Shown here one piece after another: positions 2,822-48,423 of a DNA stretch of 64,000 nucleotides. Both the position numbers and the translations under genes were made by a program. Every line of letters begins with the position of its first letter. The stretch's first letter is position 1. The notes beneath the pieces are model-generated. The model saw nothing but the letters and a program-made list of their open reading frames with translations, ran no database searches and was not told the origin of the DNA. This stretch comes from Fulvia fulva (Eukaryota; Ascomycota; Dothideomycetes; Mycosphaerellales; Mycosphaerellaceae). The stretch lies in the NCBI RefSeq assembly GCF_020509005.1, contig NC_063018.1, positions 4,526,001-4,590,000 on the forward strand. Direction: 5' to 3'.

Positions 2822-2993
2822 GTTGAAGTCGAGGTGGGTTGAGGTCATCACCTGCTCATGTCGACTCGCTTTCTTGGGTCACCTACATGACTTAGATACG
2901 GCAGTTGCAACTGGGCCGAACAAGCCTTCCAAGCGACACTCGCAACGCCCAGACTGCCCGAGCTTTTGCCATGCCCAATTCGTCCTACACAGT

Positions 2994-7599: not shown

Positions 7600-7910
7600 T
7601 TGTACAGAGAGCAAGAGCATTGGGTGCAATAGCATGGAGTCGTGGGTACAGGATGGCGTCGATGGTGGTGATACATGATACAGAGATACCCTACTGATGC
7701 GTTGATGGAATGTACAGTACGTCGAGCATGCTACATGTCGCTGGTCAAACATGCCGCATGGATACCGCACTCGGTGTGCCGCGCTGAACGCACGGGAGAT
7801 TACTGTCTGCTGCGTCAGCAGCTGCTTTGAACCTGCACTCACGACAGTCGTACAGCATGAGGCTTTTGGTGCGTCACATCGTGCCCGAGTACTTGCCAAG
7901 CAGAAAGTGT
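7600..7910. other. Intergenic region between convergent genes
   Basis: 311 bp of 3' sequence shared by the MCP1-like gene (plus) and the GMC pseudogene (minus). No supported gene. Confidence 0.4.
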
Positions 7911-10031
7911 TCAGCACGGTGTGAGTCGCCCAAGCAGTGTTGATGGCATCGTCGTCTGCTCCAAGGTCAAACGTGATGGGGAAGGACAGACTGATTGTAC
8001 TACAGTGACGCTCGTCCTCCAATTAAGCTTGTTTCTTTCATTCAAAATGTCAGAGGCTCTCTCTGCGATTGCATAGACTGCAGATCCCAGCCGGCTCGCA
8101 GGCGCCATCGGGATGATACTCGCGTCTACAATCGACACCTGCTCAAGACCATGAATCCGTAAGTAGGGATCAACCACGCCTCCAAGCTCAAGTGGCATCA
8201 TGGGGCAGGTCCCCGACGGTCTCGCAATCGAGGCGAACGCCCCACCAGTCTTGATCAGCTGCTGCATGATACCTTCGGCGGTGTGGAACTCAGGGCCAGG
8301 ACTGGAATTTGTCAGCATATCGAGACTGTGTGTTCCTGGTGCATACATGGTTTCAAGCGGCTGCAGCGGGGCCATTGCATTTGTCTGATAAATCTTGCGG
8401 GTAAAGTTCACCATGACACCTAGCATGAGGCTGTCAATGGGATTGGAGAAGGAGTTGAGATCTACTTTGGGCAGGCCCATAGGATCTGCCGGATCAAGCA
8501 GCACGGCCCCACGAGACAGCGGTTTCTGAAGGATTGCGGCGATAAGTTCCCCACCGTCAAACGGCAGCTCGAACATGGAGCTATCAGATCTGTTCAGACG
8601 GGCCTGCAGGATTGTGTACTGCATTTCGTAGCCCCGCCTGGCTTCCGGCCCATATGAAGCAGGCAGATATTCCCCACCATCTTGCGTACGGATGCGAGAT
8701 ACAATGTCGTCTTTGCTGTCTGGTGCAGTGGCTGCAAGACTCAGATATGCCACACTCTGAGGCCGAGCCTTAGCGAGAGGTCCAGTCCGAGTCTGGAGAT
8801 ACTGTGCAGCAACCTGATGCTCATAGGCATTGTCTGGTAAAGTGGCTCCACCATGAGCCACTTGTAAAAGCATATCTAGCGACGATTCGACATCCGCGGC
8901 AAGATTGAAGCGCAAGAGCGCGCCTGGCGCTTCCTGTAGGTTAGTGCCCACTCCTGGAAGTCCGTGCAGGACCTGCACGCCTGCATCCTCGAGGTCCTTT
9001 GGACCAATCCCAGACTTTTGGAGAATGTTTGGGGTGTTGAGAGTCCCTGCCGCGAGGATGGTCTCCTTCTTGGCGTGGATGTAGATAGATTCGTCGTCAC
9101 TATCCTTCACCCTCCGTACCTCAACACCCGTGACTGACTTGCCCTGCAGTGAGAGCTTTGTGACTTGACACCCAGTGAGTAGATCAAGGTTCACTCGACC
9201 GACGATGGGATCATAGTATGCTGGACGTGCAGTGACGGGTGTTTGCGAGCTCGGGTCTTGGGTCGAGGGCATCTGCAAGAAACGTAGGCACACTGTTAGC
9301 CCGTATACTTTAGCTTGACGTTCCTGGGCTGCAGATCCATTGAGAGAAAGCGACTCGGTGGGATATGTAGGCATGGGATATACGAGTCCAAGTGACACCG
9401 ACGCCTGAGAAGGCTTCATCGATCAGGAAACCTAGCTCTGCGGTCGCGTTCAACAGATGAGGCAATTGCGGGTACTGGTTGGTGGAAATGTCAATGTCAC
9501 TGGTCCAGAAGCGCCCCACGCGATCGGATCCACTTTGTGGCCATATTTGGAGATGGCATCAGGATCTGGAGCAACGTACCACGTTGATCTCTCGAAGTAC
9601 GGCTGCAAACTCCCCAGGCTCCAGCCTGGATTGCCAAGTGCTTCCCAAGCAGCGAAATCAGCTGCGCTACCCTTGACATGAACAAGGGCATTGATGGTCG
9701 TGCTACCGCCGACGGTGCCTCCAATCGGAATGCAGTATTGCTCATTGTTGCGGCATAGTCGAAATATTCAACGTGAGGCCCTTATCAAGAATGTGGGAGA
9801 AAAATGGGATTGCATCCTTTCGCGGTCAGCTAGCTGGCCATATTCCACCATCAACACCGAGATGATCGGATCATCTGTCAGTCGATTCGCTGCAGTAAAA
9901 CCTCCTGCACCAGCACCAGCGATCACAAAGTCATACTCTTGCTTGACTTGTCTAGGATCCTCAAGGTGAGCCGCGAAGACGACGGCAGCGTTGACTGAGA
10001 ATGCAACAATGGCGTTGCGTGTCGGAGACAT
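7911..10031 (-). pseudogene. GMC-family FAD oxidoreductase, frameshifted
   Basis: The N-terminus (10031-9825) has a hydrophobic leader and then YDFVIAGAGAGGFTAANRL, the FAD-binding GxGxxG fold. The next conserved blocks (RKDAIPFFSHILDKG; IPIGGTVGGSTTINAL; DISTNQYPQLPHLL; YPMPTYPTES) lie in different frames, so frame changes are needed near 9820, 9748, 9503 and 9388. From 9419 on, one long frame covers the substrate domain and C-terminus (LLTGCQVTKL, GVVDPYLRIHG, IVDASIIPMAPASRLGSAVYAIAERA). A 47-bp intron (GTCAAG donor, GCTAAC branch site, TTGCAG end at about 9270) is possible. In the active-site block, where the family has H-P-x-G-T-C, the sequence reads A-R-P-S-G-T-C, so the catalytic His appears to be Arg. 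Intact relatives oxidise alcohols (aryl-alcohol, glucose, methanol, choline type). Assembly indels could explain the frame changes but not the His change. Confidence 0.82.
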
Positions 10032-11004
10032 TGTTTCGTCGTTTGGAAAGTGGTGTGATCAATGCTGTGGTCGGGTACGCTCTGATGTTTGATTTGCTGT
10101 GCAGCATGGCAGATACTGACCAACACATCACCATCACGCCCGTGCGAGGTCATACCTGTCAATATTGACTCGAGGCACTAGGCGTGACTCCCCAGGACTG
10201 TGCCCGTGGAGACCTACGTCTACTGTCATTGAACTGCACATTTTGTTGACAACGACAGACCTCAACAAGTAAGTTAGTCCGGTATGTTACTCTTGAGGCC
10301 CTGTAACCAGGTTACCTGGTACTGAACTTTGTCGACCAAATTTCAGAGGGATCGAGAGGGGGGGCACAGCTTTTGTCAACCTCGGAGTGAACATCTTTAT
10401 GTTAGTATCCGCGCTGGCCGACTCGCTAGAGTCCAGGGTCTCGCTGGGATTAGACCAACCTGATTAGACAGCCTGCATCACAAGATCAAAAGTGGCTCCG
10501 CTACTAACAGATTCTACGCTCGGCCCACAAGTTCTACCGACTCGTGCCGTTAAATGCCGACATTCGCGAAGTTATTGCGGCGCTTGGAAGGCTTGTTTTT
10601 CGGCACTTCGAGGATGGGTCTAGACCTAGGTAGCTAGAAGCAGCACATGCATAGCTATCCCAACACCTCCAGGGATTATATCGGGCTCTTAGCATTTCGA
10701 TAGCGCGCGGATATATCCTCTCGCGGCAAGTATACATCGCCCGACAAAACGGCGTACTCTTCGACACACTTCCGAGATGCTGAGTGCGGTATGGCCGCTG
10801 GAGATGTCACATGTCTGATGATGCTGAAGCACGGCCGTGCCGCTTTGGGACCCCGAGCGGCTACCCTCATACGCACTGCCGTAGAGGAGGACTGGTGAGG
10901 AGCATGCAGTAGGCGTGGAAAGACGGATGCGCTGCGACACAGAGTGGATTCTTCCGGGAAGCAGGATTTCGAACACACTTTGTGCTCATACAAGCGTTCA
11001 GCGG
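10032..11004. other. Intergenic region, no supported gene
   Basis: About 970 bp between the GMC pseudogene and the DUF3328 fragment. Several minus-strand ORFs of 77-148 codons overlap in different frames without recognisable domains. They may be remnants. A near-palindrome CCAGGTTACCTGG sits at about 10307-10319. Confidence 0.45.
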
Positions 11005-11560
11005 CTACGAAGCTTCTAATCTGCCTTCCCACTCGAGCAAGCTGGGATGATGATGGTCGTCCACCTCTGCATGAGTGTGTATGTGTCGAAACCCTCGGAC
11101 CCATACAAGCCTCGCGTCCCAATTCTTACACGTCTTACGACTGGTACTCATGTCCACCACATTGTCTCCGTTCTTGGTCGTCATCCATGGCCATAACACC
11201 AAGTCACTTTCACACTTGACCATAGCCAGTAAAGTATCGAGACAATGGCTGGAATGTTTGATCGTCATGCCCTCCGAGGCGTTCCACGAGAGGCTGTGTA
11301 TGTCGCAGTAGTAATCGTGGTTGCATCCGAGACCTTGGTGGATGAGATTCTGACAGTGAGTATAGTGAGTCGATGCAACGTCGCTCAAGTAGTAAGTAGA
11401 TGCCTTCAAGAAGGTGGACTGTCTCGTCGTCTGCCTCAAAGACCAGATGTTCTTCGCATCGAAGCCGAAATCAGAAATCCACTTCTCAGGAACAGGTATT
11501 GCTTTGACTATTGTTTTGTCAGCTTTTTCATGGAACGAAGGGTCGTCGTCTAGCGGATTG
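11005..11560 (-). pseudogene. DUF3328 / UstYb-like oxidase, degenerate 5' half
   Basis: The C-terminal half is one clean frame ending at 11005. It contains HSSHCLDTLLAMVKC, the second HxxHC motif of the UstYa/DUF3328 family, then STSRKTCKNWDARLVW, matching the family's conserved 'H/K-x-C-x-N-W/F-D' block. Upstream in the same frame is H-Y-T-H-C, which could be the first HxxHC motif. An alternative frame there (DETVHLLEGIYLL) looks more like family sequence, so a frameshift or an unresolved intron lies near 11390-11430. I cannot find a convincing start codon or the usual N-terminal membrane helix in frame. UstYa/b proteins catalyse oxidative cyclisation in ustiloxin, cyclochlorotine and related RiPP or peptide pathways. 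It is transcribed in the same direction as the adjacent precursor gene. This is probably a broken copy. Confidence 0.7.
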
Positions 11561-11944
11561 AAAGCACACCGTATGAGCTTGCTTTGTTGGCGCTGTTAGT
11601 ACGAACAGCAGTGTTAGAGGAAGGATGGTTCCGATCGTTTATTACTCTGCTCTCCGCTCACTCGGTTCTGTTGGCATGGACAGCATTGGTGGAGGAAGGA
11701 TAGTTTAGTTCCGATCGGCGGCGGACGGTCAGCTCACGAAAGCCACGACGCAACACGGTCGCAAGAGCTCACTTCGGAACGACTGGTAAACGTAGCCTCG
11801 GAAAATGGTTCAATTGGCCAATCATGCTTTCATTTTTCTAAGGCGCACACTCCAAGATCGATCTTAACATAAGTGAACATCCAACTTGTTGAAAGCTTGG
11901 ATGCTCCTGCTGCACATTGCCAAAGCCGCCTTAAGCGGGCACTG
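11561..11944. other. Spacer with a short imperfect direct repeat
   Basis: No supported gene. A segment like GAGGAAGGATGGTTCCGATCG (21-base match split by an insertion in one copy) occurs at about 11618 and again at about 11692, about 74 bp apart. It may be part of the degenerate promoter of the DUF3328 fragment. Confidence 0.4.
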
Positions 11945-12043
11945 TCAGCCCTGCGAGGAGACGACGCCGTGTACTACGAAGTGCTCTTCGAATTTCCCCC
12001 TCTTGACCTGCTCTACTGTCTCTTCTTGCCCCTCCCGTGCAAC

Positions 12044-12137
12044 AGATGGACTGCCAGGAGGCCCGCACAGCCATCGCTTCTCCTTGTCATCGAGGTCCTC
12101 AGATAGATGGAGTGCCAGGAGGTCCGTACAGCCATCG
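12044..12137 (-). repeat. Two 61-bp-spaced copies of the core-peptide repeat
   Basis: The blocks at 12044-12076 and 12105-12137 match at all but three positions over about 32 bases. Both encode W-L-x-G-P-P-G-x-P-S on the minus strand. The spacing of 61 bp is not a multiple of three, so the second unit falls out of frame with the signal peptide. Confidence 0.85.
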
Positions 12138-12302
12138 ATCGGGCGTTTCGGGAGCGGCAACGGCTTCTGGACACTCTATTAGATCTTTTGTGTGTGCACA
12201 GGGATCGAACAGCATACTTCTCTCCACTGGAGTCGCTGTTACCAAGTTGAGTCCTGACGTAGCGACTAGGACGTAGAGAATCGACTTCATGATTCGATAC
12301 AT
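12099..12302 (-). CDS. Small secreted peptide precursor (kexin-processed, RiPP or pheromone-like)
   Basis: A 67-residue ORF with start ATG at 12302 (or in-frame Met 5). Residues 5-23 form a good signal peptide (MKSILYVLVATSGLNLVTA) before T-P-V-E-R-S. The short pro-region has two Cys (DPCAHTKDLIECPE). The protein ends in D-R-W-L-Y-G-P-P-G-T-P-S-I. Immediately downstream, in the +1 frame, a second near-identical unit occurs: K-E-K-R-W-L-C-G-P-P-G-S-P-S, preceded by an acidic linker and a K-R kexin site and followed by a second V-K-R site. Signal peptide, acidic linkers, dibasic sites and repeated cores are hallmarks of kexin-processed peptides, including dikaritin RiPP precursors and alpha-type pheromones. 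The flanking DUF3328 genes favour a RiPP precursor. The core also resembles the W-C-x-x-P-G-Q-P-C pattern of ascomycete pheromones, so that alternative stays open. The frame break suggests decay or a sequencing indel. Confidence 0.55.
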   Translation of the reverse strand: MYRIMKSILYVLVATSGLNLVTATPVERSMLFDPCAHTKDLIECPEAVAAPETPDRWLYGPPGTPSI

Positions 12303-12394
12303 GGCGTACTGTTAAGACAGTGTGACTGAAATGTCGGAATGCTTGATGATTTTACTGTTGTGGAAGGACGTTTGTTGTGGAGTAGCACTTGCAG

Positions 12395-12429
<35 letters not shown>

Positions 12430-13294
12430 GTTGCACCCACTAGTACTTAACTTGGATCACGGCCTGTAACATGTGACTTCCGGGTTCCAGGCCGTAGGGA
12501 GATGTTGGGGATGCGGGGAGAGTTCAGTCACATGCGGAGGCATATTTTGAAGGGGAATGCTTAGGTTACGAACATCCTATACGTGGCAAGACATCATGCG
12601 TACTTCTGGCTTTTCCCGTGTGCGGCAGAATCCTAATGTCTAAAACTTAGGTTGCCACCACCGACTAACTACCGGAGCTACCCCTTCTGTTTATGAAATT
12701 GCGGTCATACCATCTTCATCCCTACCATAAGTTTCCAACAGCTAGGCGGAGACGGCAGAGCCGTACAGTGCTAGCAAGTTGAGGGCTGTGCCAATCGTAG
12801 GCTTTAGGCTTGGAAATACCCCAAAATTAAGCTCAAAGCCAAGTACCCTGCGATGTTAGATGCCTATGAAAGTAAAGCAGACGGTGTGACAACTACTACC
12901 ATCGACTGACATTGCTGCTAACGGCTACCACTACCGCGAACCGGCTTTGTGCTACGACAATAAGGTCGTGCACATTTGGCGTGTCGGAGTAGTATCGTCA
13001 CCAACGAAGTACAAACGAAATATGGCCGACGGTGGCATATTCCGCATTCGTCGTTCACGAGTGCCGTTCGATCTTGGACCAACGCTACGAAGTTTAAATT
13101 GAGTATCGGTGAGCTAACTGGTCAATGAAAACATTGAGCTCACGGGCAGAATAGGAATGGAAAAATTTTGCTGTGCTTCATCTCCATCTCGACTAGAGAG
13201 CTGACGACGACTTCCTTCCTCCAACGGCCAATTTGCACATTATCTTATTAATTTAACTCCTCTCCACATCTGTGACGAACAGCTTCACTACACA
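12303..13294. promoter_or_regulatory. Divergent intergenic region between precursor and DUF3328 gene
   Basis: About 990 bp between two divergently transcribed genes, so both promoters should be here. It has near-normal base composition, with no RIP signature. An inverted repeat ACGGCCTG ... CAGGCCGT (at about 12459 and 12487) has CGG/CCG halves of the kind bound by Zn2Cys6 factors; a link to the regulator downstream is speculative. An AT microsatellite lies at 12395-12423. No other gene is supported. Confidence 0.4.
12395..12423. repeat. (TA)n microsatellite
   Basis: 29 bases of uninterrupted TA dinucleotides, about 90 bp upstream of the precursor start codon. Confidence 0.97.
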
Positions 13295-14331
13295 ATGTCC
13301 TACACGGACAATGGTTTTCACGGACAGCAGAGAGGAGAATATGACCTTCTATCGAACGCCGAAAGGCCAATGTCTGCCAAAAAGGGTTTGTCAATGCGCT
13401 GGATCCTCGTGGCACTTTTGACCACAAATATGATTTCGATCTTGTTGACGAACTCATATACTCGCCGGCAGGACATTGATGCACTTTCACCGGACCTCAA
13501 AGGCAGTAAGTTCTTAGGGGCTTTCCGCTCAACTGCATTGCTGACAGATTTAGCCGAAGCAGTTTACGATGGTGTTGACAGGGAGATGTCCATCAAAGCG
13601 TTTGACCCATTTGACCCTTATGACAACGAAAGCATATACACAGCTACTCCCAGCCAAGACGTCGAACGTGCATGGCGTGAGCTTGGAGCAGAAGTTGGCT
13701 CCTGGCTACTCCCGAAACAGTATGGTCACATCTACGACCTCGACATCAGTCGATATATGTATCAGGACAAGGATTTCGCCCCTGGCGGTGCAGAAGGCTA
13801 CCTCGTACAGTCCTGGGCAACTCACGACCTTCACTGCGTGGTAAGTTCCCATCCGGATGCTGTATTGTGGTTGTCTCGAAGCTAAGTGATTTCTCCAGAA
13901 TTTGCTTCGAAAGAACTTGTACTACAACCACGAGCATTACGCAGGGCGTATGAGCCATGAATTGCAGGAGAATGAATGGTTCAACAAGGCCCACATCAGT
14001 ACGTTCTCTCGCCAAATGTGCGGTTCCCGTGCTCAAGACTTCACTAGATCACTGCGTCAATGCGCTACGCCAGCGCGTGATGTGCACAGCAGACAGCGGA
14101 GTAATCCCCTTCGCTTGGAAAGGACCAGGCGAGAACGACCACAAGCCTGATTTTCGATCTCCACACAAATGCCATGACTATGAGTCTTTACATCGGTGGA
14201 TGACGCAGCAAGAGGCAAAGGTGCATCGTGGCCCGACAGGAATTCCTGTGCCTCCTGGATCAACATTCGATGGAGCAGGGTTTCGTTGGGCCGGACCACT
14301 ATACAACCATGACTCCCAGAGTCATCGTTGA
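13295..14331 (+). CDS. UstYa-like (DUF3328) oxidative cyclase, three exons
   Basis: Exons are 13295-13840, 13899-13998 and 14048-14331. The introns are 58 and 49 bp (GTAAGT...CCAG and GTACGT...CTAG), and phase is kept, giving 309 residues. A short cytosolic N-terminus precedes one membrane helix at about residues 34-53 (MRWILVALLTTNMISILLTN). The lumenal part has the family's Y-T-A-T-P-S-x-D-V-E-R-A-W block. The first HxxHC motif is H-D-L-H-C at the end of exon 1. The second, H-I-N-H-C, is rebuilt across the second splice and followed by V-N-A-L-R-Q-R-V-M-C-T-A-D. The C-terminal P-H-K-C-H-D-Y-E-S-L-H-R-W matches the usual 'H-x-C-R-D/N-W/F' block. UstYa-type proteins catalyse oxidative cyclisation of RiPP or NRPS peptides, probably using a metal held by the two His motifs. 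It is the only fully intact gene of the cluster, divergent from the precursor and convergent with the regulator. Confidence 0.9.
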
Positions 14332-14385
14332 CGGACACTCTTTTTCCATCGTAGATAGTCAGAGGACGATGACGAGCCATCATAG

Positions 14386-15752
14386 TCACCCAAAACATCC
14401 AGCGGTCGTCGTGACTTCGGAGCCAGCGCTCTGGAAGCCGGTATGCGTGCGCTGTCGCTCCACTACGTTTTCGCCGAAGATGCTTATTGTATCCGACTGC
14501 GGCTCTGTGAACGGCCGAGCTGCTGCCAATCGCCAGGTGAGAGACATGTGTGATCCGTTCTCGTGATACAGATTAAAGTCGTGGCCTCGCAAAAGAGGTG
14601 AACAGCGATCGTGAATAGCTCGCCACAGCTCACGCACATGCCGCAACCCTAGACGAATCAAGTTAATAATGAATTTATCTTGCTCTTCACACGTTGCATC
14701 GTACACCACGGGCCCCGCAGCCATTCGCAGTGACGCAAGGCTCCATCGATAGTGAGTGGCAGGATAACTTTTGTTTGCATTCTTCAACATGTGTAGAGGG
14801 GAGCGTAGACATTGTGCAGTGATGAACGGCGTATCTAGCTGGGGAGAGCCCTCACAGCTCCGACATTGTCGAAAGTCTTGGCAGCCATGTAACATCTTCC
14901 GTAGAACTTGGAGAGCTGCTGCTTTTGGAGTTTCGGTAGATGCGCTCTCAATCATTTTGAGCTACTTGAGTAGATTGAGTACCCGAACTAGACATCTGTA
15001 GTACTGGCTTGAAAATTGCGTATGCGTGGCTCCTGGGCGAGATTCCCACGTCAGATCAAGCTGATCTGCAGGGATCGCAGCGAAGATGTATTGGTCGGTA
15101 GTACCAGGTTCAGCAGTAGCCACGCTTTGGAGTTTGGAGGTATATTGCAGCCAGAAGTTGGACTCGCTCAGTTGTACATGATTCAGCATATCAGGGTTTT
15201 GCAGTGACTCCCCCCTCCCATCCTGAGAAGTTTTGTGTCTGCTTCAACATTTGTCAGTGCACTATCATAGCATACCCGGATGTGGCAGTCTAACAGTCGT
15301 CGCAGACGGATACGATGCTACCTCGATTGAAGTTCCGCTGACCAATAGCTGGTCGTCACTGAAGCAGCCCTGTACAATGCCGATGCGTACTGCATGCTGG
15401 ATAGCCGGACTGCCAATGTTTGGTCAGCATATGCATACACGCTTCGCGCATGACATGCTCGATTACTCGGAACGGATCACTCGCTGGCAGCCGCCGTGCT
15501 TGATGTCTCTGGACTGGGATCAATGTCGCTCGGCTGCAAGCGCTCACACAAAGCTTCGTGGTCGTTCATGAGCGACTTTCGCTTCCTTTGTCTCCTGTTC
15601 TCCAGGTTGAAGGATTTTCGCGGTCTGCCTCGAAGGTTCTCGGGACTGAACACGCGAATGTAGTCTGATTTGTGGCACTTGTCGCAAGGAGAGCCACCCA
15701 AACACTTGACATTTGCTCGGTGGCAAATATCACATGCAGGACGTAAGCCCAT
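14386..15752 (-). pseudogene. Zn2Cys6 transcription factor, degenerate
   Basis: The N-terminal ORF (15752-15477) starts MGLRPACDICHRANVKC and continues GGSPCDKCHKSDYIRVFS, then RGRPRK and a basic stretch. This is the fungal binuclear zinc cluster (C-x2-C-x6-C-x5-C-x2-C-x6-C), but the sixth Cys is Arg: codon CGC, one transition from TGC. Further pieces lie in another frame at about 15242-14962 and 14955-14386, which share a frame but are separated by a TAG at 14962-14964. They contain helical segments such as ALQVLRKMLHGC and IINLIRLGLRHVRELW that resemble the middle region of AflR-type cluster regulators. No intron that joins the parts was found. In RiPP clusters such as ustiloxin, a Zn2Cys6 regulator is common, which fits the location. 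I judge it a broken regulator. Confidence 0.68.
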
Positions 15753-16240
15753 GTATGAACCCGGCTGCTCGTACTCGGCTTTGCCTGTGGCTGTTAATCA
15801 CCTCATATGGTACTATACTACAGCAGCTAGACGGATTGAAGAACATTCTCTCGGATTAATAGACAGCTTTTGCAGTCGGTCGTCTCTGCATTCGAGGAGG
15901 CACAGCATGAGGCACAACAAAGTTTACCTGCCCGTTCGGGAAAGCACGGTTTCTGCGTACGAAGACATCTGAAGCGCTTCATGGGACCGCGGCGTTCTTT
16001 GACCTTCATGCATCCCGCAATCGTGAAAGTGTCGTCTTCAACCTGGGTGCTTTCGGATGGGCAAACGCTTTTTCCGTGCACATCTGTGCGAAGGGTGCAC
16101 GGAGGATGGACACCTGGAGCATGCCTCAGCTATGCGCCACTAACTTTCCACGAGGCTTGCATGTACGCGATCAAAGCTATTGGGCTGCTTCAGCTTTGGT
16201 GTAAAGAGCGATAGATGTAGTCTCAGCCAGTCAGAACACC
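15753..16240. other. Last unique sequence before the transposon island
   Basis: About 490 bp of normal composition. A minus-strand ORF at 16081-15827 (84 codons) is rich in Cys, including KLCCASCC, but has no signal peptide and no family I recognise. It overlaps the likely promoter of the regulator, so I do not call it a gene. Confidence 0.45.
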
Positions 16241-16577
16241 TGACCGCCCGTAAGCGGGCTCGCTTAGCCGCCTAATAGGAACAAGTCCTAGCTACTAAGG
16301 CATACGTACAGCTTCGCGCCCGCTTGCGGGCTTGCGTATAAGCTAAGACTACGTAGGCTAAGTACCTAAGCTTATAATAGATAGTAAGAAAGATGTTATA
16401 AGTAGGTATAAGTACGTAGTCGGGTAAGGTATAAGTCGAATAGATGTTCTATCTAAGAGAGGCGCGGAGGGCGCGAGAGTTATATACGGGCGCCAAGCCG
16501 CTAGTCGGACTAGTCAGCGGGCGCGGGGTCTAGGTACGTACCTATAGGTTTAAGTAAATATACGCCGGTACGGTAAT
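16241..16577 (-). repeat. LTR of the left Gypsy fragment
   Basis: It is bounded on the right by a polypurine tract complement and on the left by TGACCGCCCG at the change from unique to RIP-like sequence. It contains inverted CCCG/CGGG motifs. The left end could be off by some tens of bases. Confidence 0.55.
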
Positions 16578-17151
16578 ACTACCCCCCCTCTTAGAGTACG
16601 CTCTAGAGTACTCCCCTCTCCTCTTACGTCTATCGTATCTATTATATCTCTTATTACCTTCGTAAACACCTTGTTATCTATTAGACTACGCGTATTGCTC
16701 TCTTTCTTATAAGCCCGGAGGCCTAGTCCTACCGGTATTAGAGCTATCGCTACTTATACTAGTTAGCGCGCTATACGTATACCTATAGTATTCTTATTTA
16801 GTATCTAGTCTATAGGTAGTTAAAAACTAGGTAGCTTAGTCGCTCTCGGGTAGTTATAGTAAAAGTCGGCTATAGAGGTGGCGGTAGTCTCGATAACCTA
16901 GTCCGTAGCTTTATAGGATAGCTTATTATATCTAATATATTTCACTAAGTATTCCTAATATAGCTACTTACCTCCTACTAGTATTAGTCCTCGCGGCTAT
17001 CTCTTCTTATAGTCTAGAATTTGCTTAACTTCCTATTAATCGGGTTTAGCGGGATTAGCTTCGTATTATTTGTCGTCGATAATTTGGATCGGTAGTAGTA
17101 CGGGTTACATCTATCCTATAACCAGCGGATAAACTAGTATAAGAAGGTATA

Positions 17152-18274
17152 ACGTACTTTACTACCGAGCGGGCTATACTACCGAGCGGGCTACTTTTAC
17201 TAAGAACTATACTACTTCTACTTTACTTACGACGGTATCTTAACACGACGACATCCTATAGAATCGTTACTAGGAGGACAATTCCTCTTTAGATTCTTCG
17301 CTATCTAGCGAGTCTACTTAATAGGTGCGTACGTTATACCCCGACTCGCTATATCGCTTATAGGGTTGTAGCCTTAGTACTAGCCGAACACTATCTAGCG
17401 ACTCTCTACTTACTTCCTACCTCCTAGTATCCTCTAGAGGTATTAATTGCGACGCCTTATCGAAGGTTAGAGACCCTCTAGACTAAATATACTTGCGCTT
17501 TTGTGCTTTCCGCTATATAAGGGCCTCGTTAGACTTACGTAGCTTACTAATCTCGCTTCGTATAAGAGCTATCTAATACGCTATCTCTCTACTCCCTCTC
17601 TATTGCCCTATTAAACGACCTTCCTCTTTCCACTACGCCTTTCTAAACCCGTAACGACGCTCTAAGACGTAATAACACCTATTATAAACCCTATCTCGTC
17701 GAAGTTATAGGTGTCCTAGTTAAGGATGCTATACTTCTCCTTTATATTACGTATAAGTAAGAACTACTTCTCGATAACGTCTAGATCTTCTATTAGGGCT
17801 CGCTAACGATCGTATCTACGTGTTATACGAACCTTTAGCTCACGATACCGCCTAATAAACCTGTCTGTCTAATTAAGACTAGCGGGCTTAAGACCCTTCT
17901 CTTATAGTAATAAATCGGCTATTACTCGTATACTAGCCTTAAATAGCGGGAAACCTCTAAGATCTAGCTCGAGTATATACTTAAGTATTACCCTCTCTTC
18001 TAGCTCTATAAGCTTCTTCAAATTAGGCTCGTAGTCACCCCGAGGAGGTCGTCTATTCAATCGATACCCTAGTATAGTTCGAGACGCGTCGTATACCTTT
18101 ATAGTAAGTCGATTCGTAATTGTCGCGTCGCGTTTCGTAGCCTAGACAGCTAAGGTCAGTTTGGCCTCGTTTGAAGACAATATACGCTATAATAGTGGTT
18201 ATATAACGTACTTTACTACCGAGCGGGCCACTTTTACTAAGAACTATACTACTTCTATAGATATAGCTATATAA
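17152..18274 (-). mobile_element. Fot1/Pogo DNA transposon, internally deleted copy with one end inverted
   Basis: The left end ACGTACTTTACTACCGAGCG follows a TA dinucleotide and matches the complete copy at 54650-56515. The interior is about 740 bp shorter: it jumps from CTCTCTACTCCCT straight to CTCTATTGCCCT (near 17600), removing most of the transposase DDE domain. At the right end the last ~67 bp (18206-18272) are inverted relative to the complete copy, so the two ends form a direct repeat, and only one of the two CCGAGCGGGC units remains. It is non-autonomous and sits inside the Gypsy fragment. Confidence 0.75.
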
Positions 18275-19622
18275 TAGGTATTACCCGGTAGTACCTCCGT
18301 AATTACGTACGGTCTAGACTACTTTACATCTATCTTACGAGAAGGTCTCTCTATCGTCTAGTTCTTAGTACTTACCTATACTTCGTCGCCTTCGGCGTAC
18401 CGTAGTATAGGTTTCCGAGTCTAGTTTATGTACTTAGCTTAGACTACTTATACTAAGGCTATCTACTATTGTAAGTATTAGTATATCTCTTATATCTTAG
18501 CCGTAAACTTGTCCGCGGGCTCGGCGTCTAGTCGCTATTTATATAGTATTAGTAGTATAGGTAAGTCTAAGTTAAACTTAGAGAACCTTAGATTACGCCT
18601 AGTATTAGTATAGAACGGCGAGACGCCTATTATTACGGACACTATATTATTTACTATAAACTTAGCTAATAGAGTCTAATCTAGCTAGTCGTCCTAGGTA
18701 TAGTTAATAAAGATACGTATGTATTGCTCTATTACTTTGTTTATATTCTCCGAATATCTATCTATTTCTAGGTAGAACGACAAAGATAGCTTTCGATTAA
18801 TACTAAGTAGCGCGTATATCCTACGCTAGAATATAGAAACCTATTACGTACTACGATCCGAGATAATAGACTTCGGGAGCCTATGTCTACTAAACACGTA
18901 CTTAAGGAATACTAGTACGTAATGCTCTACTACTATCGAGGTAAGAGGAATAAGATATCGCTCCTTAGTTAGGCGGTATATAACGGTTATAATGTTCTCG
19001 TACGTTTGTCCGTCGACTACGCTTATTCCCTTCGGTAGTTTAACTACGAAGTTAATAGAGATATCCTCTTAAGCGCTAAATAGTACTAGTAGCGGTCTTA
19101 ATAGCCCTAGGTACTAGATATTAGTGTTCTTATTCGTACGGTAAGCGTAGTAGGTACGTATATAGCTCTTAATAAATCGTACGATACCTAGCTAGGTATA
19201 GTTACGAGCTACTAATTTATACGTCTTCTTGTCCCCTAAGTAGCTAGCTACTATATAGTCGTAGAAAGCCTATACAATACGAGTACGTACCGGGATTTTA
19301 CCTTTATCTAGATTATCTTCTAACTCGGGAGGAACGAATAGGCTATAACTACTATATACATTCTTAATATATATTATGCCTCTAACTAGGACTATATAAC
19401 GGTTATCGATACGGTACTTCCTTAGTAAGGTATATAGTTCATCTCGTTCTAGCTATTAAACGGCTTCCTTAGCCTCTAGTTACGTATAGAGTCCTCGAAT
19501 AGCGGTCGTAAGCGGGGTTATAACGTTATTAGAATATACTAATAATACTCTAGTAGACGATAGGTTCAGAATACGACCTAGGCCTAGTAATACCTAATAC
19601 TACTATTAGTTTCGTAGGTTAT

Positions 19623-19806
19623 TATAAGGGCGCGCGTACCGTAGGGTCCGAATAAGAGAGTTTTTATTCTATAAAGCTACGAAAGAGGAGCGCGAGGCGC
19701 GGCGAAGTTATAAAGTAAAGCTAAGCCGCGCTAACCCGATACGGAAGGTCTGCGGTTCACCCGGGCCGACGTAGCTATAGTAAGGGGTCGCGGGCTACCC
19801 GTAATA
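19623..19806 (-). repeat. Gypsy A left (3') LTR
   Basis: 184 bp beginning TATAAGGGCGCGCG and ending CCCGTAATA; co-linear with the right copy and with both LTRs of the younger family member. Confidence 0.92.
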
Positions 19807-22800
19807 GTACTCCCCCTCTTAAAACGCGTCTTAGTCCTCTAAGCGTTATCTATCTTATACGGCCACTTACCCGTACTACTCTATAACCGTACGAAAGTCT
19901 AATTATCCTATAATACCTTATTACTGTCTAGTAATACATCTATATTTAGTCTATCTATAACTAGCCTATCCGCGACCGGCTCCCTTCGAGAAATACTTAG
20001 GGGGACCTAATTAGATAGAGCTACGAAGCCTATAGGCGTAGATAACTCCGGCAGGTTATAGTAAAAGTCTATAATAGCGGCGGCCGCGTATTTAAACATA
20101 TTCTTAGCCGGTTACTAGGTCTTACTATCCTCCTTATTCTAATATCTAAGCTATTTTACCTTATACTAAGTGTCTACTTTACGCTTCTACCCCTTCTTTA
20201 CTTTACCTACTCGCTTACGGGTATATATATCTAAGATCTTCTCTACCTTATATATATATATAGGTATTACGACTATATTAGCGACTATATTAGCTTCGGT
20301 AGTATCGGGCTCGATAGTTATCGGCGGTAGTAGTACTAGATACTAGCCTTCGAGTAGTAGGAAGTCGGGATGATTGGCTTACTAAAGTAACGAGGTATAA
20401 AAGTAGTTATCGAGTCCTACTATAGCGTCCGATAATCTTAGTTTATATAAGAGCTTAGCTAGTATAACTTCTATAATCTAGTACGGGCTAGCGTATCTTC
20501 TATCGAGCTTCTTAGATAGTCAAGTCGTACGGATGTTCTTAGTACTTAGGTATACCTAGTCGCCTACTCTATAGTCTAGCGGGATGCTTCGGTAGCGGTT
20601 TACTACTTTAGCTTAGAGAGCTTATAATATCCGTATATTTTCTTAAAGGTACTTATAAAGGTCGTAAATCCGGCGTACAAAGGCTTTAGCCGATCGCGTA
20701 TCTAGTCGCTAGAGAGTAGTTAGTTCTCCCTCTTTTCTAGCGCTTAGGTCTACGCGCTCTATAAACTAAGGGTTATAGCCTAAAGTAGCGTAGAATAGCA
20801 ATATACTAGTAGTTTCAGAAAGGTAGTTATTAGTCGCAAACTAAGCTAGACAAAGCTATTCTGCCTAGTTATCTTATACCTTGTTAGTAAATATACGGAG
20901 ATACTATTCTATTACTTAGTTAGTACGTTCCGACTATCTATTAGTTTCTAGGTAGTATAAAGAACTTAGCTTACGACTTATACGAAGTATCTTATAAAGT
21001 TTCTTCTAGAAGGTAGTAATCTATTACTTACCGCGGTCTAAAGTAATAGTATTAGGAAATCCGCGTCGGGAGAATATATACTTAAGGAAAAGTCTTACCG
21101 TATTCTATATAGTTATCGCTCCGATTAGAATTAGCTCGACTTCCTTCGTTAGCCTATCTATTACGGTTATAATGTTATTATAGGTCATACTATCGAGGGT
21201 GCTATTAGGAAGTCCGACTACAAAGTCTACCGCGATATACCTTTAAGGTCGGTCCGGTACTAAAAGTAGGTATAATAATCTAGGTAGCTAGGAGTATAGA
21301 GATTTCGTCGTATAGTATATACGGTAATTCGCGGTATATCTACGTACTAATCTTACTAAGCTAGGCTAGTAGAATTCTCGTACTACGAGTTTATAGGTTC
21401 GAGCTCGTCCTAGATATCCTACTACTAGAGCGTTATGATTTATTCTAATAAGCCGAGTCCGTAGGGCCTAGTTATTAGGTACCTATAGGCTCTAACTATC
21501 GTACTAGTTTCGTATATATAATATATTACTATCTACCTTATAGTACGTAGGGTATATCTTCGCCTTCTATAAGAGTAGAGGGATAGTACTATCTTTCCGT
21601 AGTATCTTAATTGCCGCCTTAAGTTCTTAGTCTAGGGCGTAAGTACTCGTTATACGGTACTTAAGTTTAGCTTCGACTTCGGCTTTATTTGTAGTCTATA
21701 CTTCCTAAGCTAGTACTAGCTATATTTATAGTACCTATTCTAGTTCTAGAATAAACTCGATTGCTTTAGGATTTAGAGAAGTCGTCTTTTCTTCTTCGGT
21801 CGTATCTTCGATAGTAGTTCGTATAGAGTCGATCTTAAGGAATCGCTCTAGCGGAAGTAATGTCTAATACTAGTACTAATTTCTCGGATCGTCTACCTCC
21901 TACGGAAGGTTCTAGCTACGTCTCGTTAGGCTATCTAGCTTCGTTCTTTATATACCTAGGCGGTATATAATCTAGAAGTTAAATTATAATAGAAATTCTA
22001 CCTATCGCGCTTATCGGCGATTTAGCTACTTCGTAGTCATAAAATATTCGTGGTTCTTATAGTCTATAAACACTTTGACTAGATCGCCGTCCTCGTCTAC
22101 TTCGTAAGTAAGCTCCGGGCGCTACTCTTCAAATACTTTAATAATCGCGAGGAGTTCCTTATCGTAGATCTCGTAACTATACTCCTAGGGGCTTAGCTTC
22201 TTCGAAAAGAAAGCTATATGATATAATACTCCCTACTTGTTGTATTATAAGAGCATACCTATATTAATAAAGTCTAAGGAGTTAGTCTCGACGACGGTCT
22301 ATCTACCCGGTATATAGTATACTAGTATACCCGCCTTACTAAACGCTACTTTTAACGCCTCGAATGCCCTCTAATAATTATTAGTTTAGTTGATTCTACG
22401 GTTCTTATGATTGCTAGGCCTATCTAACTTCGTTAGGTTAGTTAATAGGGATGTAATACGAGAGAAGGCCTCGATATACCTACGGTAGAAGTTCGTAAAT
22501 CCTAGGAAGGCTTAGATATCCTTAAGATTAGTTAGTGCTTTCTAGGTCTATATACATTCCAATTTCTCCGGGTCTATCTCGATGCCCTAGGGTGTAATAA
22601 TAAGGCCTAGATATTTTATACGTTCCTAGTAGAACTCGGACTTATTGATATTAATAGTAAGCCCGGTATCTTGTAGCTTAATTAATACCTTTCGTACGTA
22701 TTCGACGTATTCCTCTAGAGTGTCGCTAAAGATAAGGATGTTATCTAGATATACTAATATAAAGTTATCTAGATGTTCCTATAGAACCTTATTAATATAT

Positions 22801-23619
22801 AACTAAAAGGTTACGGATCCGTTATAGAGGCCGAACGGTAATACGAGGTATTCGTATATACCGTAGTATATTACGAAAGTTATTAGCTACTCGTACACTT
22901 CCGTAATACGTAACGTATTAAAGGCTACTATAATATCTAGTTTCGTAAAGTACTTCTTTCCGTCTATAGGGTTTAGCGTTTCCTATATTAATAGAATAGG
23001 ATAGCGATTCTTAATAGTAATAGCGTTTAGCCTACGGTAATTAGTATATACTCGTAGCCCTCCTCTAGGCTTTCTTACTACTAATACCGGTGCCGGTGAC
23101 TAGCTTGTTTTCTAACCGGCCTTACGTACCTTACCTTATAAAGGCTATTTGAGTAACTATTCCTTAACGGCTTTATTCTCCTTCTCGACTCGTCCGTATA
23201 GCTTTCGATATAGCGGTTCGTAAGGTCTACCGGATTTAATATAAATCTTGTAGTCGATACCTAGTTAGTAAGGTAGGAGTCCCTCGTAGTCCTTTACTAA
23301 GAAAGTATCTATAATGTCGTAGTATATAGGCGGGAGCTTCTCTTTAGGATTATAGTTAAACTACTTATTTAAGAACTGATCTAGGTTTTTAGCTACTATC
23401 GCGCTTAGTTTAAGGCTATTATCGTTATTATTGTTATCCTCGCGCCCCGTAGGTATAATATAGAAGCACTCGGCCCTAGACCGGTACGCGTATATCTCCT
23501 ATACGCGCTACGAGACTTCCTAGTAATCTACCTCTTTATCTACCTCTAGAGCGGACATATCTAGCTCCATCCTTCCGGCTATAAATCCTACTAATTCGCT
23601 AGTAAAGGGCTTTAGTCTA

Positions 23620-23867
23620 TATTTCGTTCTACTAATACAGTTTAGAGATTATACTATTGTCGATGTCTTGTTATATAGATAGTAATCGAAGTAGTAGTTA
23701 GATCTAAACGCTACCTTGCTAGTTTCCTAGAAGATATTCGGGTTATTTCGTTCTACTAATATAGTTTAGAGATTATACTATTGTCGATATCTTGTTATAT
23801 AGATAGTGACCGAAGTAGTAGTTAGATCTAAACGCCACCTCGCTAGTTTTCTAGAAGATGTTCGGGT
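23620..23867. repeat. 124-bp tandem duplication inside Gypsy A
   Basis: 23620-23743 is repeated at 23744-23867 with scattered, mostly C/T-type differences. The matching part of the younger copy (about 60850-60975) is single. 124 is not a multiple of three, so the duplication also shifts the frame, close to the protease region. Confidence 0.88.
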
Positions 23868-25120
23868 TATACGCGGAGAGCTACGGTAGTCTAAAGACGA
23901 TATTATATTCGAGGTCGGTAACGTAGTATAGTATTTACTCGTAATAACCGTCGATAACTACGTCTATAAGGGCTATATATATGATCTAACGCGCTATAGC
24001 CGATCTATCTTCTAGTATTAATCGTCTATTCTTCGTTAAAGGGATTAAGGGGGTTATATATTTACGTATAAATTTCTAATTAAGAAAGAGAGAGGTAGAG
24101 GTAGAATCTATAAGGCTACGAGCCTTTTTATATTATATTATTACGGGTAATACTATATAAGGGTGTATAGCTAGTTATTGTTTATCTAGTATATATACCG
24201 ATATCTTAAGCTCCTTACTATAGTCCGTCTCTTATATTCTATATCTCTTAATCTTATACTCTTTCTATCTTAGAAAGTTCGGTTACTAACCGCTATCTAC
24301 TACGCTTAGGTAGCGGTCGTGCCATTTCCCTATTACTATAGGTCGGTAGTAAGGGAGCTAAGGTTCGGGTTAGCGTTCGCGTTATTTCGTAGGCGTAGAG
24401 GGCGGTAGTCGCCGTAACAACTATATATCGGGTATTCGGGGTTCGTTAAATACGTACGAGCCTATACGGTAGCGGTAGTACTTACCCTACTTCTTAAGGT
24501 CCTTACGCTACTTACGGTTTAATAAAGGTAGGTTCTATAAGTAAACCGGTAGGTCCTCCTTCTTCTTTATACCTACGTATTATAGTAGTCGCTAGACGAT
24601 TATAGCGGTCGTACTAGTAGCTACGGCGCCTACGGTATTACTACCGCCCTATACGCCGTTATTATACGAATTAGGGTTACTACGTAGGCGCTCCTTCTAT
24701 AGATATAGTCGGTCGGTCTCGTAGAAGCTCTTATCTAATACCGTACATTCCTTAATAACATCCTATATATTGTATAAGCGTCTATCTACTCCCCTATCGC
24801 CGAAAGTCTTAATAAAGTACTTACGGTTTAGGCGGTTACGAAATAGTATTAGCTTAGTCTCGTCGGTCTACTCTATCTAAGTACGTAGCTTTGAGTAGTA
24901 AGCATAGAAGGTAATAAAGGTCTCGCCCTACTCCTACTTATAGGTAGCAATATTAACTATAGCCTTAGTTCCTTCGTCACGGGTACCGTACTAGCGCGTT
25001 ATCTAATCTAGTAGTTCTTTATTAGTCTTAAACTCGTTAAATAATTATTGTCTAGGTACGGGGATCCTCGGCTTAATACTTCTCTAAGGGTCACCCTATA
25101 TCTATCTATATATAAAACGT

Positions 25121-28100
25121 CGTACGTCCACTACGTCCTAGCAATCTAGGAGCTATAGATTAACCCGTAATATAAGAGACTAACAACCTACAAGTCACTA
25201 GGCTACATAACATGCCTACGAGGCGACGGTAGACCCCGTACGTGCTTCTATATTAGTAAGGACATACTAGAATCCGACTAGGAGGTAGTGTACTATATAG
25301 ACAAAGAAGGCGGGGGCGATTCTACCTCCCTCTACGTAGGTAGCACCTAGATACACAACCTATATATACAACCGCTAGCCTCGAGGTCTAGCCGCGACCT
25401 AGGGGTCTATAGACACCTAGACAGTACGCTTAAGAGACAAGGGTGCTACATCGTAGTAGGAGACTTCAACGTACACTACCCTTCCTAGGAAAGCCTTATA
25501 TAGCCGTACCCTATAGCCGACGAAGTACTCGACTTGATAGCGAGCAACGTAATTGCCCTCAATACCCTAAAGGACCTAGGTACCTAGAAGAGAGGGGGAC
25601 TCTAAGGCACGATCGACCTCTCCTAGATCTTAGATAGCCACTACTATATAGTAACCTACTATAGGATCGAATATATACTCGAGGCGTTATTAGACTACAT
25701 ACTAGTCAGGACCTCTATTACGACATAGATACAACGCACACTAGCGAGAACCCCTAAGCTAAACTAGGGAAAGGTCTACTAGGCCAATATCTAGGCGTAC
25801 CTCGATAACTCCGAGAGGCTAGTCTAGATCGCGTAGTAGCAATACATTAGTAAAGACGAGATAGACGAGGCAGTCTAAGGGTTAATAGACGAGATAAGAA
25901 AAGCGACCTTACTTCACGTTCCGCTTACCTAACTAACGACATAGTCTAAACTATACTAGACGCCGAAGTATACTACGGTAGTAAGAGAAGTAAGGAGAGC
26001 CCGCCGGGTATAGACGAGTAGCTATAGCGAGGAGGCCTAGAACGTATATAGGGAGGCATACTAACAGAAGAAAGCTATAATACGGAGGGAGAAAGCAGTC
26101 GGCTAGAGGGCTATAGTAGAAGAAATTGCCGGCAAGCTAGCGAGGATATAGAAGCTAGCAAAATGGGCCCGACAGGACCCTATACAGGGCCCCTGCTTCT
26201 CTATACTAGCGCTATAATCGCCTAGTAGCCCGGTTAGCGACCCCGAGGCCAAGGCGCGTCTACTAGCTAGCAAGTTCTTCCCGCCCCTAGTCGAGGCTGA
26301 TCTAAGCGACATAAACAGCTCTACTCCCCTAGCCCCTAGTATCGCGGTCCGATAGGAGGTGTCCGAGGGAGAAGTTGCCGCTATACTTAGGAAGTTGCCG
26401 GCGAAGAAAGCCCCGGGGCCGGATAGGATCCTAAACGAGCTACTAAAGAAGTGTAGATATCAACTAGCCCTAGTAGTTATAGCGATCTTCAACGCCTGCC
26501 TATAGACTAGATACCACCCGATAGCATTTAAACAATCGACGATAGTAGTCCTACGTAAGCCGTAAAAGGAAGACTATACGTAGGTAAAGTCGTACCGCCT
26601 AATTGCGCTCCTTAATACTCTTAGGAAGGCGCTTAAGAAGCTAGTTATAACGAGACTCTCCGAGGCGGTAGAGGAATACTCCCTACTCCCGGACACCTAG
26701 ATAGGTGCGCGCCTATAGCGATCGACGCTATCCGCGATAGAACTTATTACCTCTTAGGTAAAGGCTATCTAGTATAAGAATAGGGACAAGGTGGCTTCCT
26801 TACTTAGCCTAGACATATTAGGAGCCTTCGACCACGTGTTATACCCGCGGCTACTCTATATCCTAAGATCGAAAGGACTCCCTAAGTAGCTTATTAACTT
26901 TGTACGGTCCTAACTCTAAAACCGTAGCACGTCGATCCTAGTCGGCTAGTATAGAAGCCTATTTTAAGCAGTCTATACTAGAATCCCGTAAGGCTTAACG
27001 CTAGTACCGATTCTGTTCCTCTTCTTTATAGCGACGCTACTCCTAGCCCTAGAATCCTAGAACACCGCTACGAGCGGCTTCGTAGACGATACGAACATCC
27101 TAGCGTAGTCTTCCTCGACTAAGGAGAACTATAGGCTACTAGAAGAGAAGCACAAGATCTACGAGGACTAGGCTAGGAGGTACGGGGCTCGGTTTGCCCT
27201 AGAAAAGTACAATCTAATACACTTTACGTGCCGGCTACGATTCTATAATATATAAGCTTCTATCTAGATATAGGGGCATACGACTAACCCGGTAGATCAG
27301 CTCAGGATCCTTAGACTATAGGTAGACCCGGCGCTATAGTAGAGGAAGCATATATAGGCAATATTACGGAAAGCTAAACAGAATATAGCATTATACTAGA
27401 GGCTCACTACGTCTATATAGGGCGCGGACTTCTAGTAGTTACGACTCCTATATACGGCTATTATACGGCCAGTCCTTACCTATAGTAGCTAAGTGTAGTC
27501 CTTAGGCGAGAGGGCCTGCCTATCGAAGGGACTCGTCGCGCCGCTAGTGAAAATCCAAAACTAATACCTAAGGAAGGTCACCGGGGCATATAAGTCGACG
27601 CTAATAAGGATGCTTAAGTACGAGACCGCTATACCGCCGATCGACCTATATATCTAGGGACTACGGACCTCCTACTTAGGCAAGTCGGCATAGTACCTAG
27701 TATAGAAGGTTATCGCTAGTGTAGTCGTAAGGGCCCGCGAATTAGTACTAGCGTATAAGGGTATTCGACCCGGAAACGAGCCGAACTACTAGGTAAGGGA
27801 CGAATAGCTAGTAACACGGTAGGAAGGTAAGAAGTCGTTTATAGAGCAACTATAGAAAGAGAGGTAGAACAACTAGGGTGTAGGGCATAGTAGACGCCCT
27901 TAGCTAGCGGGACAACCTAAGGAATAGTTAGCTACGAAATCCGCGGTCAAGTACCCCCCGAAGCTTATCTACTACCGCCTACGAGGGTATAGAGTAGTAT
28001 AGCAACCTAACTACGAAGCGAACACATCGGCCTCTAGGGGTACCTAATATAGAGGAAGGTTCTAGGATATATAAATACTAGCTGCCCCTACGGCTATCGC

Positions 28101-48377: not shown

Positions 48378-48423
48378 GACACCATCAGAGGATGATGAAG
48401 TTGATGAGGTTGCCCATTCAACT

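What the first reader, a model, noticed from the sequence alone, without database searches (positions are those of the whole stretch)
11005..15752. Candidate decaying RiPP (dikaritin-like) cluster with a new core peptide
A signal-peptide precursor with repeated W-L-[YC]-G-P-P-G-[TS]-P-S cores next to K-R sites lies between two DUF3328 (UstYa/UstYb-type) genes, with a Zn2Cys6 regulator beside them and a broken GMC oxidoreductase upstream. Kexin-processed precursor plus paired DUF3328 genes is the recognised layout of ustiloxin-type fungal RiPP clusters. The proline-rich W/Y core does not match the ustiloxin, phomopsin or asperipin cores I know. The co-location is seen; the pathway is inferred. 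Only one DUF3328 gene looks functional.
Basis: partly seen in the sequence, partly recalled or inferred. Interest (0 to 1): 0.85.

Follow-up and report, generated by a model that had tools for sequence, protein, structure and literature searches.

The report
Decayed fungal cyclic-peptide gene cluster
In the tomato leaf-mould fungus, a short secreted-peptide gene with two out-of-frame copies of a proline-rich core sits between one intact and one apparently truncated gene of a family that ties fungal peptides into rings, which looks like the worn-out remains of a cyclic-peptide pathway of a known kind.

Summary
The window is from Cladosporium fulvum (Fulvia fulva) Race 5 (67,169,167 bases, 14 contigs; 67.17 Mb, 14 chromosomes in PMC9453070). 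A 67-aa ORF with a signal-peptide-like start (12302-12099, minus) ends in DRWLYGPPGTPSI. A second copy, KRWLCGPPGSPSV, lies 61 nt on and so out of frame. Both UstYa/DUF3328 genes pass Pfam: 13295-14331 (plus) is intact, four exons (134 bits); 11595-11005 (minus) scores 50 bits, keeps both HxxHC motifs, but its first Met falls between them. The Zn2Cys6 domain has five of six cysteines; the GMC oxidoreductase is spread over frames. Best reading: remnant of a dikaritin-like RiPP cluster with one intact gene. No relative of the precursor was found in two protein searches or elsewhere in this genome. No other fungal genome could be searched, so synteny is untested. An alpha-pheromone-like origin of the core is a real but less likely rival. 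The same genome holds better-preserved precursor candidates beside UstYa genes on C11 and C9.

The parts
12099..12302 (-). Candidate precursor ORF, 67 aa (63 aa from the second Met at 12290), hydrophobic N-terminus, ends with the first core WLYGPPGTPSI directly before a stop
   Evidence: an identical 67-aa protein is in the protein database with a longest contig of 4,402 b, i.e. not this 4.69-Mb contig
12105..12137 (-). First core repeat (preceded by DR)
12044..12076 (-). Second core repeat (preceded by KR), in another frame than the first
   Evidence: 61-nt spacing
11945..12175 (-). Open stretch that carries the second core, with KR directly before it and another KR 13 residues after it
11005..11595 (-). 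Second UstYa/DUF3328-family ORF, probably truncated: HxxHC motifs at residues 77 and 114, first Met at residue 110, no transmembrane start seen upstream by eye
   Evidence: PF11807 50 bits; frames; positions
13295..14331 (+). Intact UstYa/DUF3328 gene, four exons (13295-13505; 13548 or 13554 to 13840; 13899-13998; 14048-14331), motifs HDLHC and HINHC, one N-terminal hydrophobic stretch
   Evidence: NCBI CLAFUW4_11714, 293 aa, listed on 5 contigs
12303..13294 (.). Intergenic region between the divergent precursor and UstYa gene, with a TA repeat at 12395-12423
   Evidence: a shared promoter is inference
15477..15797 (-). Zn2Cys6 regulator, N-terminal part, five of six expected cysteines
   Evidence: PF00172 22.8 bits; residues; the expected sixth cysteine is recalled knowledge of the family
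14386..14961 (-). Possible C-terminal part of the same regulator, separated by stops and frame changes
   Evidence: no Pfam hit; assignment is inference
7911..10058 (-). GMC oxidoreductase in pieces over different frames, probably broken (introns not modelled)
   Evidence: PF00732 on ORFs 9767-9450 and 9422-7911, PF05199 on 9422-7911; 10058-9768 only below cut-offs; ORF 9558-9310 no hit
16200..26000 (.). RIP-mutated, retroelement-like DNA that bounds the locus on the right
   Evidence: RIP thresholds passed in 10 of 10 1-kb windows from 16001 to 26000 and in 0 of 9 from 7001 to 16000; 12001-13000 comes near (product 1.08, composite 0.04) and holds the TA repeat

Best explanation
This is the remnant of a small ustiloxin-type (dikaritin-like) RiPP cluster in Cladosporium fulvum. 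In its working form a secreted precursor with repeated W-L-[YC]-G-P-P-G-[TS]-P-S cores would enter the secretory pathway, be cut by a Kex2-type protease at KR sites, and have its core side chains cross-linked by UstYa-family oxidases, under a Zn2Cys6 regulator (all inferred from known clusters). What the sequence shows: one UstYa gene is intact; the second has no Met ahead of its second motif; the two cores are out of frame with each other; the regulator lacks a zinc-binding cysteine and is split; the GMC gene lies in pieces over frames. So the pathway as a whole is most likely dead or reduced, with the UstYa gene as its last intact member.
For: Two UstYa-family genes within 3,327 b. Both HxxHC motifs in both; the double motif is given as a mark of RiPP-related DUF3328 proteins in PMC12048977 (passages). 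Precursor ORF with a signal-peptide-like start (hydrophobic score 1.84) and duplicated core, divergent from the UstYa gene across about 1 kb. Such repeats are uncommon in control DNA. Codon score of the precursor ORF (0.060) lies between the 90th (0.038) and 95th (0.073) percentile of 506 ORFs of 60-80 codons; the second-core frame (0.092) above the 95th. First core holds W and Y; Y is reported as mandatory for DUF3328 cyclisation in three known products (PMC7329392 passages). Better-preserved candidates in the same genome: C11 (a unit in three copies with KR, UstYa exons about 2 kb away) and C9 (signal-peptide ORF with KR and a Y-rich stretch about 1.3 kb from a UstYa gene that is the second-best match of the intact one, 36%).
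Against: No relative of the precursor in the protein database or elsewhere in this genome. KR at one core only. Neither frame of the precursor was picked up by my own Kex2-repeat scan, which did find the C11 and C12 candidates. The usual partner genes of the older dikaritin definition (tyrosinase, methyltransferase, peptidase, transporter) were not among the flanking ORFs scanned with Pfam, a chosen subset. DUF3328 proteins also serve non-RiPP pathways (PMC12048977 section 22), and UniRef names the intact one 'Cyclochlorotine biosynthesis protein O'. The signal-peptide call is approximate: the ORF did not pass the full filter (its V-T-A site is not in the cleavage pattern used).
Confidence: 0.6

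Rival explanations
1. The precursor is a decayed alpha-pheromone-like gene, or a paralogue of one: a secreted Kex2-processed peptide without modification, beside UstYa genes by accident.
For: Cores begin with W and contain PG, like many alpha-pheromone repeats of Leotiomycetes (WCGRPGQPC in 31 of 36 Sclerotiniaceae; the vast majority of repeats have GQ or PG; PMC10569646 passages). Pleosporales pheromones share PYG[L/M]P[I/V]G (PMC6339444 section 8), loosely like L-Y-G-P-P-G. The leader stretch PEAVAAPETP resembles XA/XP dipeptide spacers. PMC6339444 names C. fulvum among presumed asexual fungi that keep pheromone genes (passage). DUF3328 genes have been tied to the sexual cycle in some fungi (PMC5006380 passages).
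Against: No GQ, no cysteine pair, no XA/XP spacer directly before the second core. Of 216 putative fungal pheromones only 3 have a DUF3328 gene nearby (PMC7329392). C. fulvum's own pheromone was not identified here: pattern searches gave no Kex2-type pheromone candidate among the places looked at (the long list was not followed up). One fetched place, L078, does carry repeated C-xxx-GQ-x-C, in a long cysteine-rich protein that does not look like a pheromone precursor.
Confidence: 0.17
2. The locus is not fully dead: the 67-aa ORF is a working single-core precursor modified by the intact UstYa enzyme, and the second copy is a leftover.
For: The ORF is open from signal-like start to stop; an identical ORF is in a second database record. 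The UstYa protein is listed on 5 contigs, which fits the five published C. fulvum assemblies (inference; PMC10823647, title and passages). A single-core precursor is considered possible for some clusters (PMC12048977 section 22).
Against: The 67-aa ORF has no KR; its core follows DR. Regulator and GMC gene look broken. The second core keeps KR before it and another KR 13 residues after it, which fits a former multi-core gene better.
Confidence: 0.12
3. The small ORF is a chance ORF in intergenic DNA, and the UstYa genes belong to some other, non-RiPP chemistry.
For: No homologue; short ORF; codon score only just above the bulk of like-sized ORFs; UniRef name of the intact UstYa protein points to a non-RiPP pathway.
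Against: A hydrophobic start, an uncommon 33-nt repeat, a KR site and a position between two UstYa genes coincide. Repeats of this quality number 2 in 108,125 b of control DNA and SP-like ORFs 12 in the same DNA, though that SP filter did not pass this ORF either.
Confidence: 0.11

Closest known systems
Ustiloxin/phomopsin/asperipin-2a (dikaritin) clusters
   Same: Secreted precursor with repeated short cores, a KR site, UstYa-family genes with double HxxHC motifs, a Zn2Cys6 gene near by
   Different: Core is proline-rich W-L-[YC]-G-P-P-G-[TS]-P-S and lacks the EDYXI core that PMC6339444 gives for ustiloxins and phomopsins (section 10); two copies only, out of frame; partner genes broken or not seen
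Kex2-processed repeat proteins (KEPs) in general
   Same: Signal-like start plus repeated peptides near Kex2-type sites
   Different: As it stands the ORF holds one core; my own repeat scan did not pick it up
Ascomycete alpha-pheromone precursors
   Same: W-start core with PG, Kex2-type site
   Different: No GQ, no cysteine pair, UstYa genes adjacent
Cyclochlorotine biosynthesis protein O (UniRef name of the intact UstYa protein)
   Same: UstYa/DUF3328 family
   Different: Cyclochlorotine is a nonribosomal-peptide pathway (recalled; one search lists its DUF3328 chemistry); no synthetase was seen among the flanking ORFs scanned

Membership tests
Dikaritin (ustiloxin-type) RiPP cluster | At least one DUF3328/UstYa protein with two HxxHC motifs | tested here: met
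   PF11807 134.4 bits for CLAFUW4_11714, HDLHC and HINHC; second ORF 50 bits, two motifs
Dikaritin (ustiloxin-type) RiPP cluster | Precursor with signal peptide | tested here: inconclusive
   Hydrophobic score 1.84, full filter not passed; SignalP not available
Dikaritin (ustiloxin-type) RiPP cluster | Repeated cores in one reading frame | tested here: not met
   Two copies, 61 nt apart, in different frames; so it is not filed as a working member, only as a likely remnant
Dikaritin (ustiloxin-type) RiPP cluster | Kex2 (KR) site at each core | tested here: not met
   KR before the second core, DR before the first
Dikaritin (ustiloxin-type) RiPP cluster | Tyrosinase, methyltransferase, peptidase or transporter genes (older five-gene definition) | tested here: inconclusive
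   Not among the flanking ORFs scanned with Pfam, a chosen subset; PMC12048977 notes that working clusters lack some of these
Dikaritin (ustiloxin-type) RiPP cluster | Cross-linked peptide product | not testable with these tools
   Needs mass spectrometry
Alpha-pheromone precursor | Cysteine pair with GQ, or PYGxPxG core | tested here: not met
   Core sequences against motifs
Alpha-pheromone precursor | No DUF3328 gene in the neighbourhood (true of 213 of 216) | tested here: not met
   Two UstYa-family genes flank it; figure
Alpha-pheromone precursor | XA/XP (STE13) dipeptides directly before the core | tested here: inconclusive
   Second core follows KR directly; before the first core stands an XA/XP-like stretch followed by DR

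The most novel reading that the evidence does not exclude
The core descends from an alpha-pheromone-type repeat that was taken over by UstYa enzymes: W start, PG turn and an XA/XP-like leader are kept, while the cysteines gave way to a W/Y pair that the oxidases could cross-link. This would be a trace of the pheromone-to-cyclic-peptide transition proposed for Kex2-repeat proteins in PMC7329392 (passages).
Probability: 0.07. Interest if true: 0.7.

Novelty: new member of a known kind. Interest (0 to 1): 0.4.

Why it matters
It would add a proline-rich W/Y core to the known range of ustiloxin-type peptides and show such a cluster dying gene by gene beside RIP-mutated transposons. In C. fulvum UstYa domains are one of five Pfam domains overrepresented in a set of 391 genes discussed under genome compartments (PMC9453070 passage), and in the related banana pathogen 11 DUF3328 genes are more highly expressed in infected leaves and none in culture (PMC5006380 passages). 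The passages that I saw of the two C. fulvum genome papers say nothing of RiPP precursors. The better-preserved candidates on C11 and C9 of this genome are probably the more useful lead.

Tried and rejected
Search for C. fulvum's own alpha-pheromone by DNA pattern. WC-(gap)-PGQ-[PA]-C: 0 matches. WC-(gap)-GQ-x-C: 74 matches against 44 for the reversed control; 50 of the 74 places were fetched (30, 20), and none of the in-frame ORFs printed looked like a Kex2-repeat precursor by eye. C-xxx-GQ-x-C: 277 matches against 119 for the control, only 100 listed, not followed up. C-xx-PGQ-x-C: 26 matches against 5 for the control; 4 places fetched; one of them, L078, is a long cysteine-rich protein with repeated C-xxx-GQ-x-C, the other three are single matches.

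RIP as the cause of decay: not supported for 7-16 kb, where 0 of 9 1-kb windows pass the thresholds. Sequencing error as the cause of the stop: less likely, since an identical 67-aa ORF is in another record, though that may be the same strain. An intron between the cores: only 28 nt separate the two repeats, too short for an ordinary fungal intron (recalled). Solved structures: no relative of the UstYa protein, best E 0.96. NCBIfam: no hit for four sequences. The core strings WLYGPP, YGPPGTP and WLCGPP are in no paper of the library.

Errors of mine: the codon score of UstYa exon 2 was taken one base out of frame and is discarded; exons 1 and 4 score 0.083 and -0.011, so the codon measure is weak. 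In one search the UstYa start was set one base off; one search has the right one. No structure prediction was run.
Full report
Source. The window lies at G000:C7:4526001-4590000 of a genome of 67,169,167 bases in 14 contigs. Cladosporium fulvum Race 5 is published as 67.17 Mb in 14 chromosomes (PMC9453070, passages), and the intact UstYa protein is the NCBI entry CLAFUW4_11714 of Fulvia fulva. The longest contig listed for that protein, 4,686,795 b, is the length of C7.

Anatomy, left to right. Ordinary genes come first (a Dyp-type peroxidase C-terminal domain at 3968-2994, an MCP1-type membrane protein at 6568-7599). Then GMC oxidoreductase pieces on the minus strand (10058-7911), the second UstYa ORF (11595-11005 minus), the precursor region (12302-11945 minus), about 1 kb of intergenic DNA, the intact UstYa gene (13295-14331 plus) and a regulator read toward it (15797-14386 minus). 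From about 16.2 kb on lies RIP-mutated DNA.

The UstYa genes. The intact gene has four exons; the NCBI model differs in the acceptor of intron 1 and is two residues shorter. It matches PF11807 with 134.4 bits over residues 36-253 and has the motifs HDLHC and HINHC. It is listed on 5 contigs. The database search gave 3 hits at E <= 0.001 out of 343 candidates: this protein, a piece of it, and a partial protein of Cercospora zeae-maydis, 46% identical over 62% of the query. In this genome its best other matches are on C5 (47%) and C9 (36%). The second ORF matches PF11807 with 50 bits and has HxxHC at residues 77 and 114, but its first Met is residue 110, and I see no transmembrane start upstream in any frame. 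An upstream exon is not excluded. Its only other matches in this genome are distant (28-36%, 3 places).

The precursor. ORF 12302-12099 reads MYRIMKSILYVLVATSG... and ends ...TPDRWLYGPPGTPSI-stop. The second copy, KEKRWLCGPPGSPSVAREGQEETVEQVKR, is in another frame. The DNA repeat is 33 nt, 91%, spacing 61. In the two control sets 8 of 8 repeats of like quality (6 in 146,315 b; 2 in 108,125 b) have spacings that are multiples of three. A spacing that is not, with a stop directly after the first core, is what a frame break in a former repeat gene would leave. The same 67-aa ORF is in another database record whose longest contig is 4,402 b, so the stop is not peculiar to this assembly. Codon scores are mildly coding-like for both frames but the measure is weak.

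Is it a RiPP precursor? For: position between two UstYa genes, duplicated core with W and (in the first copy) Y, a KR, a hydrophobic start. In PMC7329392 (abstract and passages) 22.3% of 7878 Kex2-repeat genes lie by DUF3328 genes, at an average distance of 3.09 genes, against 3 of 216 putative pheromone genes. Against: no homologue among 5.77 billion proteins under two length windows (1 candidate, itself; 7 candidates, none at E <= 10), no second copy in the genome, KR at one core only, and neither frame picked up by my own Kex2-repeat scan. That survey says most KEP types are unique at least at genus level, so the missing homologue is weak evidence.

Pheromone rival. The cores begin with W and have PG, as many alpha-pheromones do, and C. 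fulvum is said to keep a pheromone gene (PMC6339444 passage). I did not find that gene by pattern (only part of the matches were looked at), so the comparison is open. The DUF3328 neighbours and the missing GQ and cysteine pair speak against it.

State of the locus. Regulator: CDIC...VKC...SPCDKC, then SDYIRVF where a sixth cysteine would be expected (the expectation is recalled); two later ORFs have no Pfam hit. GMC: PF00732 on two ORFs and PF05199 on one, with the stretch between profile positions 71 and 132 not matched on any ORF tested; introns were not modelled. So four of five members look broken and one intact. RIP did not do it by the published indices, though 12-13 kb comes near the product threshold and holds a TA repeat.

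Wider view. A scan of 24 UstYa-flanking loci plus window 1-16,500 (190,751 b, overlapping in part; not every UstYa place was fetched) for ORFs with two or more KR and a repeated 6-mer gave 7 ORFs. Two look like Kex2-repeat precursors: L072 1766-2086 minus (C11:46765-47085), a unit ANPVYNAPYDSNYGIAGDGLKEAEKDKR in three copies, and L066 7751-8773 minus (C12:1520750-1521772), a 341-aa KR/ER repeat protein between UstYa genes. The other 5 look like ordinary or spurious ORFs. L068 5770-6048 plus (C9:39769-40047) has a signal-peptide ORF with VKRGDDSPYEHYRNPRIF and a 33-nt repeat copy 132 nt on. These show that the layout in question occurs in this genome in better shape, and they make a RiPP origin of the given locus more plausible. 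None of the loci held has another core like W-[LMIV]-x-G-x-P-G.

Print. Library searches: C. fulvum with pheromone precursor (4 papers), Dothideomycete pheromone terms, Fulvia fulva with RiPP, C. fulvum with alpha-pheromone (none), UstYa with precursor, Kex2 and Dothideomycetes, two of C. fulvum, DUF3328, UstY, ustiloxin, dikaritin (44 papers, 20 listed), the core strings (none), Mycosphaerellaceae with RiPP terms. I saw no description of this locus in the listings or passages; most subscription papers and all supplements are outside the search.

Verdict. The most likely story is a decayed dikaritin-like cluster with a core for which I found no match: a new member of a known kind, in ruins. 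Interest 0.4.

Noticed in passing
L072:1766-2086 minus (G000:C11:46765-47085): Kex2-type precursor candidate: unit ANPVYNAPYDSNYGIAGDGLKEAEKDKR in three near-identical copies, with a possible signal-peptide exon upstream in another frame, about 2 kb from UstYa exons (PF11807 62.5 and 49.6 bits) at C11:48958-49684.
   Followed up: partly
L068:5770-6048 plus (G000:C9:39769-40047): Signal-peptide ORF MARLLVVLASLLSVLVSAYPAQEEQVKRGDDSPYEHYRNPRIF... with a 33-nt repeat copy 132 nt on, near a UstYa gene at C9:38066-38494: another candidate RiPP precursor.
   Followed up: partly
L066:7751-8773 minus (G000:C12:1520750-1521772): 341-aa ORF with repeated segments after KR or ER, between UstYa matches at C12:1515630-1516404 and C12:1522860-1523620.
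   Followed up: no
L078 minus (G000:C13:931100-931900): Long cysteine-rich ORF with repeated C-xxx-GQ-x-C units, met while looking for pheromone genes.
   Followed up: no
window 16200-25000 and 48325-50927: Strongly RIP-mutated DNA; retroelement pol-like ORFs at 48325-50927 by eye.
   Followed up: partly
G000, whole genome: 41 PF11807 matches at E <= 0.001 (exon by exon, so fewer genes), several with internal stops.
   Followed up: partly
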